Shown here in pieces: positions 25,984 through 26,988 of a DNA stretch of 64,000 bases (positions are counted from its first letter, which is position 1; each line of letters begins with the position of its first letter). The position numbers were made by a program, and so were the translations under genes. The DNA comes from Candidatus Poribacteria bacterium (lineage in GTDB: Bacteria > Poribacteria > WGA-4E > WGA-3G), in contig JAJEDB010000118.1 of the NCBI GenBank assembly GCA_022821725.1, forward strand, positions 1 to 64,000, in the 5' to 3' direction. Under the pieces are notes generated by a model. That model made no database searches, was not told where the DNA came from, and saw only the letters and a program-made list of their open reading frames with translations.

Positions 25984-26988
25984 ATGAAAAAAATAAAGAA
26001 CGTCGGTTTATTCGTCAATACGAGCAAAGCAAACGCGGCGGGTGTCGTCGAAGGCGTGTCTATGTGGTTAGAGGAACAGGACACCGTTCCACTTTTATCA
26101 GACGAACAAGCCGTTGAATTAGGACATCCGCAAACCGGTATCTCCAAAACAGAGGTCGTAGAGCAAGCAGATGTCCTTCTCGTCCTCGGTGGAGATGGGA
26201 CGCTCCTCAGCGCAGCGCATACACCGAAGATTGAAAATGTGCCTATCTTAGCGATTAACATCGGGACCCTTGGATTTCTGACAGACGCATCCCTCGATGA
26301 ACTGTATCCGACGCTGAACGCTCTTTTGACAGGGGCTTATCGCATAGAACATCGAATGATGTTAGAGGTCATTGTGAACGGTCTCCAAGCCGACGCCAAC
26401 GAACTGCAAGGGACCCTTAACACCAAAAACGCAGCCCGTAACGCGCAGGGACGAGGTGACCTCGCCCGGACAGAGGACGGATATACAGAACGGAAACCCG
26501 AAACCCAGCTGACTGAACCGCAAGGGAACATTAAAACTTTCGCACTCAACGATGTCGTGATCCGGCACTATACGCATCTCATTGAATTAGATGCTTACGT
26601 CGATGGAGAACTCTTTATACCCTATAACGCCGATGGGTTGATCATCGCAACGCCGAGCGGATCGACCGGATACTCGCTCTCCTGTGCGGGGACTATCGTT
26701 GCACCACAGGTGGAGGCGATTCTGTTGACACCCATCGCACCCCATAGCTTGACAGTGCGCCCCTTCATCGCCGATGGCGCTGCGGAAATAACCGTCAAAA
26801 TGCGCGCTGCATATCAGAGTGTAGATGTTTTTGTGGACGGTCAACGCGAGACATACAGTCTCACCGCGGGTGCCGTTATCAGTGTGAAAAAAGCGGAACG
26901 AACAATTCAACTCATCCGTTCACAGAACCATAGTTACTATAGAGCCTTACGCGAAAAACTTATGTTGGGCGAGAGAATTTTTAAATAA
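25984..26988 (+). CDS. nadK: NAD(+) kinase with internal repeat-derived insertion
   Basis: LGGDGTLLSAA, INIGTLGFLTD, ADGLIIATPSGSTGYSLSCAG, NHSYY; extra segment before ALNDVVIRH. Confidence 0.92.
   Translation: MKKIKNVGLFVNTSKANAAGVVEGVSMWLEEQDTVPLLSDEQAVELGHPQTGISKTEVVEQADVLLVLGGDGTLLSAAHTPKIENVPILAINIGTLGFLTDASLDELYPTLNALLTGAYRIEHRMMLEVIVNGLQADANELQGTLNTKNAARNAQGRGDLARTEDGYTERKPETQLTEPQGNIKTFALNDVVIRHYTHLIELDAYVDGELFIPYNADGLIIATPSGSTGYSLSCAGTIVAPQVEAILLTPIAPHSLTVRPFIADGAAEITVKMRAAYQSVDVFVDGQRETYSLTAGAVISVKKAERTIQLIRSQNHSYYRALREKLMLGERIFK
26430..26536 (+). repeat. leader-type dispersed repeat copy inside nadK
   Basis: CGCAGCCCGTAACG...GGATATACAGAACGG...GAACCGCAAGGGAACATTAAAA; compare 44191-44279 and 47899-47991. 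Confidence 0.7.

What the first reader, a model, noticed from the sequence alone, without database searches (positions are those of the whole stretch)
26430..26536. Leader-type element inserted in frame within NAD kinase
Between EVIVNG and ALNDVVIRH, NadK normally has a short linker. Here about 45-55 residues include RNAQGRGDLARTEDGYTERKPETQLTEPQGNIKT, whose DNA matches the leader element (GCAGCCCGTAACG...GGATATACAGAACGG...GAACCGCAAGGGAACATTAAAA). A second tail-like GAACTGCAAGGGACCCTTAA sits just before it. An essential metabolic enzyme has apparently tolerated a repeat insertion.
Basis: partly seen in the sequence, partly recalled or inferred. Interest (0 to 1): 0.8.

Follow-up and report, generated by a model that had tools for sequence, protein, structure and literature searches.

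The report
Mobile leader repeat inside NAD kinase
In a genus of sponge-living Poribacteria, a short genomic repeat that normally sits just in front of genes and carries their ribosome-binding site has also landed, always in the readable frame, inside proteins such as the essential enzyme NAD kinase, where it forms a floppy loop that differs in presence and copy number between close relatives.

Summary
Confirmed and extended. NadK (25984-26988, +) has a 59-aa interdomain linker where empty Poribacteria relatives have 16-21 aa. The extra DNA is one copy (26431-26536) of a ~90-nt repeat plus a preceding extra tail (26401-26420). The repeat has at least 150 copies in this genome, is largely genus-restricted, and has a covarying RNA stem. 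In 36 of 88 copies examined an ATG follows 0-3 nt after its AAGG tail, so it looks like a mobile translational leader. NadK orthologues are polymorphic: 11 of 37 genus genomes with a readable linker carry a unit, scattered on the tree. Among 120 metagenomic NadKs the linker is empty, tail-only, one unit, or two tandem units. Units are always in one reading frame. Codon positions in the linker diverge evenly (41/38/51; flanks 107/70/512), so the frame is kept but not the residues; AlphaFold predicts disorder. The same frame lies inside other genes: a YegS/DAG kinase (same domain junction), TamB-like, SprA-like and membrane proteins here; AnmK, UvrA and a propeller protein in relatives. It works like Rickettsia palindromic elements but is not filed as one. 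New: the phylum, the ribosome-binding-site leader role, coding tandem growth and contraction. Unproven: mobilising machinery, NadK activity, any benefit.

The parts
25984..26988 (+). nadK, 334 aa, single copy
   Evidence: Pfam NAD_kinase / NAD_kinase_C; NADK fold, best PDB matches 7qvs and 7mh7
26365..26541 (+). expanded interdomain linker, 59 codons (residues 128-186)
   Evidence: 16-21 aa in orthologues without a unit; residues 137-180 pLDDT below 50
26401..26420 (+). extra upstream element tail (tail 1), reads NELQGTLN
   Evidence: GAACTGCAAGGGAACATTAA in G023; distance to tail 2 is 114 nt = 38 codons
26431..26536 (+). one full element unit inserted in frame (AARNAQGRGDLARTEDGYTERKPETQLTEPQGNIK)
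   Evidence: blastn to many copies in the same genome; nhmmer hit 26470-26535 E=1e-10
26448..26467 (+). palindromic loop module GGGACGAGGTGACCTCGCCC inside the unit
   Evidence: similar module in copies at G000:C52 and G000:C111; folds as hairpin
26515..26536 (+). conserved tail 2 with CC-GCAA-GG and AAGG (Shine-Dalgarno-like in leader copies), reads TEPQGNIK
29020..29064 (+). shortened leader copy directly before the ATG (29065) of a 1227-aa gene; full length in G016 and G023
32745..32791 (+). leader tail copy before the next gene (TTG start)
44191..44278 (+). full element copy before an ATG (226-aa ORF)
44955..45044 (-). full element copy, no ORF start found at its tail
47899..47990 (+). element copy reading in frame into a 697-aa ORF; relative G041 lacks it and has ATGGAAGTTGAAACT there
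52885..52971 (-). element copy before an ATG (959-aa ORF)
53037..53107 (-). partial tandem copy 5' of the previous one

Best explanation
The insert is a copy of a dispersed, non-autonomous repeat of a Candidatus Poribacteria genus. The repeat forms two covarying stems plus a CC-GCAA-GG mini-hairpin and often ends at a start codon, supplying an AAGG ribosome-binding site. In the consensus only one sense frame is open (AARNEMEGGYTERNVKPETHLTEPQGKIKK). A copy landing in that frame in a surface loop therefore adds a hydrophilic, disordered peptide and can be tolerated. In nadK it sits in the loop between the N-domain and the C-terminal beta-sandwich. Because units there are a whole number of codons and are bracketed by the direct repeat GAACCGCAAG, they can be duplicated or deleted without loss of frame, and linker alleles may be exchanged between species. 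Shown: repeat family, in-frame position, polymorphism, even codon-position divergence, retained NadK motifs. Inferred: mobility and recombination mechanism, leader function, retained enzyme activity, neutrality.
For: Repeat family with >=150 copies here, in all 27 sampled genomes of the genus (as few as 2 and 10 copies in two) and rare or absent in other genera of the order. Covariation: 62 cells with both-sided changes, 0 of 500 shuffles as high, slid controls at most 17. ATG 0-3 nt after the tail in 36 of 88 copies; 44 of 88 with an ATG ORF within 40 nt against 1 of 88 on the other side. NadK carriers are 11 of 37 genomes with a readable linker and lie beside non-carriers on the tree. Allele series of empty, tail only (12), and >40-aa linkers (64) with one unit or two tandem units among 120 NadKs. 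Linker differences by codon position 41/38/51 against 107/70/512 in flanks; Fisher p=3e-20 for synonymous against nonsynonymous. Insert pLDDT 25-32 while the N-domain is mostly 83-96. Same frame inside a DAG kinase/YegS, TamB-like, SprA-like and a 776-aa membrane protein here, and AnmK, a UvrA-UvrA fusion and a propeller protein in relatives. The two long stop-free antisense frames (>=250 aa) in this genome are N-terminal, none internal.
Against: No transposase was linked to the element: four Y1 transposase-like genes exist but none has a copy within about 1.5 kb. No clean empty-site pair with a target duplication was found, so the act of insertion is inferred. Expression and activity are untested. 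Same-type linkers in distant clades are more alike at third positions than the flanks (0.78 against 0.52 for G005/G041), which can mean allele exchange rather than fresh insertion. The AlphaFold alignment was narrow and the C-domain model is itself weak (block means down to 38).
Confidence: 0.87

Rival explanations
1. The insert is an adaptive protein module (regulatory or assembly loop) of NadK that spreads between species by recombination because it is useful.
For: 64 of 120 NadK homologues have a linker over 40 aa; same-type linkers in distant clades are more similar than flanks at third positions; it recurs in the equivalent junction of a YegS/DAG kinase.
Against: No sign of amino-acid constraint: codon positions diverge evenly; sister species with and without it; predicted disordered; the same peptide occurs in unrelated proteins.
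Confidence: 0.08
2. The element inside nadK keeps its leader role: it starts internal translation or acts as an RNA/DNA signal, and the encoded peptide is a by-product.
For: The tail with AAGG is preserved in most nadK copies; elsewhere this tail precedes start codons.
Against: No ATG at the usual spacing after tail 2; the first start-like codon found is a GTG 21 nt downstream and would give a NadK fragment without the GGDG motif; one stem pair is disrupted in this copy (GCCC against GGAC).
Confidence: 0.05
3. The stretch is removed at the RNA or translation level (intron-like or bypassed), so the enzyme is normal.
For: None direct; the element forms RNA structure.
Against: All units are in frame and stop-free; no Rfam match; elsewhere the element ends at start codons; removal would not require a whole number of codons.
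Confidence: 0.02
4. Assembly chimera in this draft genome.
For: The window is from a 151-contig draft.
Against: The same architecture in independent assemblies, including a single-contig 6.66-Mb chromosome (G005 / OX639973) and many metagenomic proteins.
Confidence: 0.005

Closest known systems
Rickettsia palindromic elements (RPE) and Wolbachia palindromic elements
   Same: 100-150 bp dispersed repeats with one open frame, found both between genes and in frame inside unrelated, often conserved proteins; an RPE-carrying guanylate kinase is active with changed substrate affinity (PMC10969869, PMC2229807).
   Different: Different phylum; RPEs are described as long stem-loops with terminal inverted repeats, whereas this element has two short stems and a non-palindromic tail. 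The Poribacteria element ends at start codons as a leader and shows tandem unit growth and contraction in one loop. Sequence relation was not tested.
REP / GTAG-tagged palindromes and RAYT transposases
   Same: The unit often begins GTAG followed by a GC stem, is present in more than 100 copies and occurs in tandem; intragenic REPs (including in uvrA) are reported in Opitutus terrae and others (PMC3733652).
   Different: REPs are 20-40 bp and, in the genomes diagrammed there, often close to gene 3' ends; this unit is ~90 nt, lies at gene 5' ends, often reads GCAG instead of GTAG, and no Y1 transposase gene is flanked by it here.
ERIC/RU, Correia and other bacterial MITEs fused in frame
   Same: Small non-autonomous repeats with an open frame sometimes fused to genes (PMC2759123, PMC2229807).
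   Different: No terminal inverted repeats or target duplication identified here; sequence similarity was not tested.
TAACTGA direct repeats of Beggiatoaceae
   Same: Repeats placed immediately upstream of start codons in many genes (PMC4679880).
   Different: Heptamer arrays with little Shine-Dalgarno character and stops in all forward frames, against a ~90-nt structured unit carrying AAGG and one open frame.

Membership tests
Rickettsia palindromic elements | Dispersed repeat present both intergenically and in frame inside unrelated genes | tested here: met
Rickettsia palindromic elements | One conserved open frame used in coding insertions | tested here: met
   All internal cases found read ARNEMEGG-TER..TEPQGKIK; long stop-free antisense frames are N-terminal only
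Rickettsia palindromic elements | Long palindrome with terminal inverted repeats | tested here: not met
   Covarying structure is two short stems plus a tail; the two ends do not pair
Rickettsia palindromic elements | Sequence homology to RPE families | not tested
   No RPE sequence was at hand
REP (GTAG class) | GTAG tetranucleotide at the foot of a hairpin | tested here: inconclusive
   Many copies begin GTAG-CCC..GGGC, but a large minority read GCAG or AAG
REP (GTAG class) | 20-40 bp length | tested here: not met
   Unit of about 89-114 nt
REP (GTAG class) | RAYT gene flanked by the repeat | tested here: not met
   Four Y1_Tnp loci in G000, no element within about 1.5 kb; other genomes of the genus not searched
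MITE | Terminal inverted repeats and target-site duplication | tested here: inconclusive
   No inverted ends seen in the alignment; no clean empty/filled pair to score a duplication
Known structured RNA family (Rfam) | Match to an Rfam model | tested here: not met
   No match up to E=10 in 26300-26700; leader copies elsewhere were not scanned
NAD kinase | Conserved catalytic GGDG and ND motifs around the insert | tested here: met
   Residues 69-72 and 189-190 conserved in A2; Pfam and PDB matches

The most novel reading that the evidence does not exclude
A mobile, structured translational leader (it brings a ribosome-binding site to genes) doubles as a protein-linker generator. It spreads in a single coding-compatible frame, and at nadK forms a coding tandem array whose unit number changes between close relatives and may be passed between sponge symbionts, so that a housekeeping enzyme's interdomain linker is continually remodelled by a regulatory repeat.
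Probability: 0.4. Interest if true: 0.75.

Novelty: new variant of a known kind. Interest (0 to 1): 0.64.

Why it matters
In-frame invasion of essential proteins by dispersed repeats is known mainly from Rickettsiales, with intragenic REPs and MITE fusions elsewhere. Here it is frequent in a distant phylum, and many closely related genomes show the intermediates (empty, tail only, one unit, two units, partial) at one site in one enzyme, so gain, loss, exchange and tolerance can be measured directly. The same element sits as an apparent translational leader at many genes, linking regulatory-repeat mobility to protein loop evolution. It also warns annotators: reading into the element gives false N-terminal extensions or hides true ones.

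Tried and rejected
REP/RAYT mobilisation: Y1 transposase-like genes exist but none is flanked by the element, so it is left open. Antisense insertions: peptides of both open antisense frames were searched; long stop-free antisense frames (480 and 299 aa) have the element only at the N-terminal end. Presence/absence in the window: the 29018-29064 leader is shortened in G000 relative to G016/G023, which reads as a deletion, not an insertion event. A structure count with brackets shifted by one column gave no support and was redone correctly. Single-sequence folding energies are unremarkable (z 0.17, -1.76 and -0.87), so structure rests on covariation. Tail-to-tail distances are multiples of 3 in 8 of 8 coding cases against 12/9/7 in non-coding ones, but this is partly circular because the frame must be open. 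Papers on repeats in Poribacteria: none found. The first RPE papers (Ogata et al. 2000, 2002) were not read; one was tried and is not held, so RPE features come from reviews.

Full report
What is there. The ORF at 25984-26988 (+) encodes a 334-aa NAD kinase; Pfam sees the N-terminal domain at residues 55-119 and the C-terminal domain at 193-312, with the insert between. It is the only NadK found in the genome, a 4.97-Mb draft of 151 contigs at 91% completeness. Named relatives of this NadK are, with one distant exception, Candidatus Poribacteria metagenome assemblies; that these are sponge symbionts is general knowledge of the phylum (e.g. PMC8546597). Between LE and ALNDVV the protein has 59 residues; relatives without the unit have 16-21. 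The extra DNA is one full copy of a dispersed element (26431-26536) preceded by a second element tail (26401-26420).

The element. The stretch hits dozens of places in the same genome, and copies from several genomes align over about 89 nt. Covariation supports a 5' stem (GCCC/GGGC and its variants, closing on C-GAA-G or U-GAA-A) and a second helix CGG..AGG/CCT..CCG: 62 two-sided cells, none of 500 shuffles as high, slid controls at most 17. A constant CC-GCAA-GG closes the 3' part. The stem loop holds interchangeable modules; the nadK copy here has GGGACGAGGTGACCTCGCCC, with similar modules at two other loci. A covariance model finds at least 150 copies in this genome, a listing cap. In a draw of 59 genomes of the order, all 27 genomes of the genus match, though two have only 2 and 10 matches, while other genera have few or none (one has 22). 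In the peptide search one of the 38 genus genomes, G021, had no match, so copy number varies widely.

Usual position. Of 88 distinct copies of this genome with enough downstream sequence, 44 are followed within 40 nt by an ATG ORF of at least 80 codons, 36 of them with the ATG 0-3 nt after the tail; the same test on the other side gives 1. The tail places AAGG about 10-12 nt before that ATG, a plausible Shine-Dalgarno position.

In-frame coding copies. In the consensus, one sense frame is open: AARNEMEGGYTERNVKPETHLTEPQGKIKK. In this genome it lies deep inside five proteins: NadK; a DAG kinase (Pfam DAGK_cat 9-130, YegS_C 182-336, insert between them); a TamB/AsmA-like protein; an SprA-like protein (weak, below-cut-off Pfam hit); and a 776-aa membrane protein without a Pfam match. 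In relatives it lies in AnmK (two genomes, same loop, different inserts), at the junction of a fused double UvrA (two genomes) and in a propeller protein. The DAG kinase linker is also variable: several genomes carry the element there, others carry unrelated filler, total 30-55 aa (the pattern used recovered 13 of 30 genomes). NadK and YegS share the fold, and the element sits at the same domain junction in both. Both antisense frames searched as controls gave long stop-free frames only with the element at the N-terminal end.

Evolution at nadK. Eleven of 37 genus genomes with a readable linker carry a unit (G000, G016, G023, G041, G046, G005, G006, G020, G001, G011, G050), in several separate places on a tree of NadK plus upstream flank, repeatedly next to non-carriers (three of the non-carriers, G018, G048 and G049, were left out of the tree by the pattern used but have 16-aa linkers). 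Among 120 homologues from public metagenomes, 64 have linkers over 40 aa, 12 are 26-aa tail-only forms and 44 are 16-21 aa (this last class includes ..NAPQGKIKTF forms that read as tail remnants in the G000 lineage). Two-unit alleles occur (94 aa, e.g. P0027 and P0052; 88 aa, e.g. P0030). Units repeat at 102-nt (34-codon) steps in G041 and 114 nt here, multiples of three (partly circular). Same-type linkers in distant clades are more alike than flanks at third positions (G005/G041 0.78 against 0.52; G011/G050 0.89 against 0.62), suggesting exchange of linker alleles or insertion of near-identical copies; the present data do not separate these.

Constraint. Over seven carrier pairs (not all independent), linker differences by codon position are 41/38/51 (chi-square p=0.34) against 107/70/512 in the rest of NadK; changed codons are 32 synonymous to 73 nonsynonymous in the linker against 467 to 137 outside (Fisher p=3e-20). 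The frame is kept, the residues are free. AlphaFold gives most of residues 137-180 pLDDT of about 25-32 in an NADK fold whose best PDB matches are Pseudomonas aeruginosa NadK 7qvs and 7mh7; the C-domain model is weak, so only the disorder of the insert and the fold are used. In 7mh7 the equivalent linker is about 11 residues (133-143), just before the ND motif of the C-terminal part.

Mechanism, marked by certainty. Shown: repeat identity, position, frame, polymorphism, tandem alleles, lack of amino-acid constraint. Inferred: units insert by an unknown route; whole-codon unit length and flanking GAACCGCAAG repeats let units duplicate or delete in frame; hydrophilic peptide in a surface loop is tolerated. 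Not shown: mobilising enzyme, target rule, enzyme activity.

Comparison. It works like Rickettsia palindromic elements (in-frame repeats in many genes; PMC10969869, PMC2229807) and like intragenic REPs (PMC3733652), but fails or leaves open defining features of each (see membership rows). No paper on such repeats in Poribacteria was found in the held library. I file it as a new variant of the known kind 'dispersed repeat that inserts in frame into proteins'.

Noticed in passing
window 47899-47990; L061-L063, L091-L098, L102, L125, L151, L153: Several genes read in frame from the element with no ATG after its tail (CoaBC, homocysteine S-methyltransferase, NAD epimerase, PafA/Dop-like, SDR, M16 peptidase; names by eye). 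Many show I-K-x (ATT) where M-K-x is expected; the epimerase instead seems to start upstream of the element (MQEPLK.. after AAGGA). Either AUU starts or true N-terminal extensions.
   Followed up: partly
window 30241-30285, also 11073, 37759-37896, 59117-59261, 60113: A second dispersed repeat (TCGGGGTTACAAACCCCTCCCAC) in and between genes; the copy at 30241 lies inside the 1227-aa oxidoreductase-like ORF, read in frame as ..KRGIGVTNPSHNLF.., so another repeat family may also sit in coding sequence.
   Followed up: no
L107, L108 (G013, G001): A fused double UvrA (open frame 2034 aa in G001) whose junction is made of an element tail plus a full element, suggesting a leader turned into a fusion linker.
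   Followed up: partly
L071 (G017 C1:4577262-4578017): Tandem array of at least five element copies at about 111-nt spacing.
   Followed up: no
L045, L047, L049, L052, L034 (upstream of recN): A variant leader (GTAAGCCCAACCAACGGGCGGGCTGGATATACGG..) precedes recN just downstream of nadK in several species but not in G000; the nadK unit of G001, G011 and G050 resembles this variant, so the neighbouring leader may be its source.
   Followed up: partly
L282-L292 (DAG kinase linkers) and G009/G041 leaders: Non-carrier DAG kinase linkers contain peptides such as LTDNRQPTTDN that look like translations of CCGACAA/TAACTGA-type intergenic repeats, so other non-coding repeats may also fill this linker.
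   Followed up: partly
L259-L262: Four Y1 (HUH) transposase-like genes in G000, two of them RAYT-like by eye, without nearby element copies.
   Followed up: yes
window 6273-6479: In-phase 33/21-nt repeats, possibly a coiled-coil coding region.
   Followed up: no
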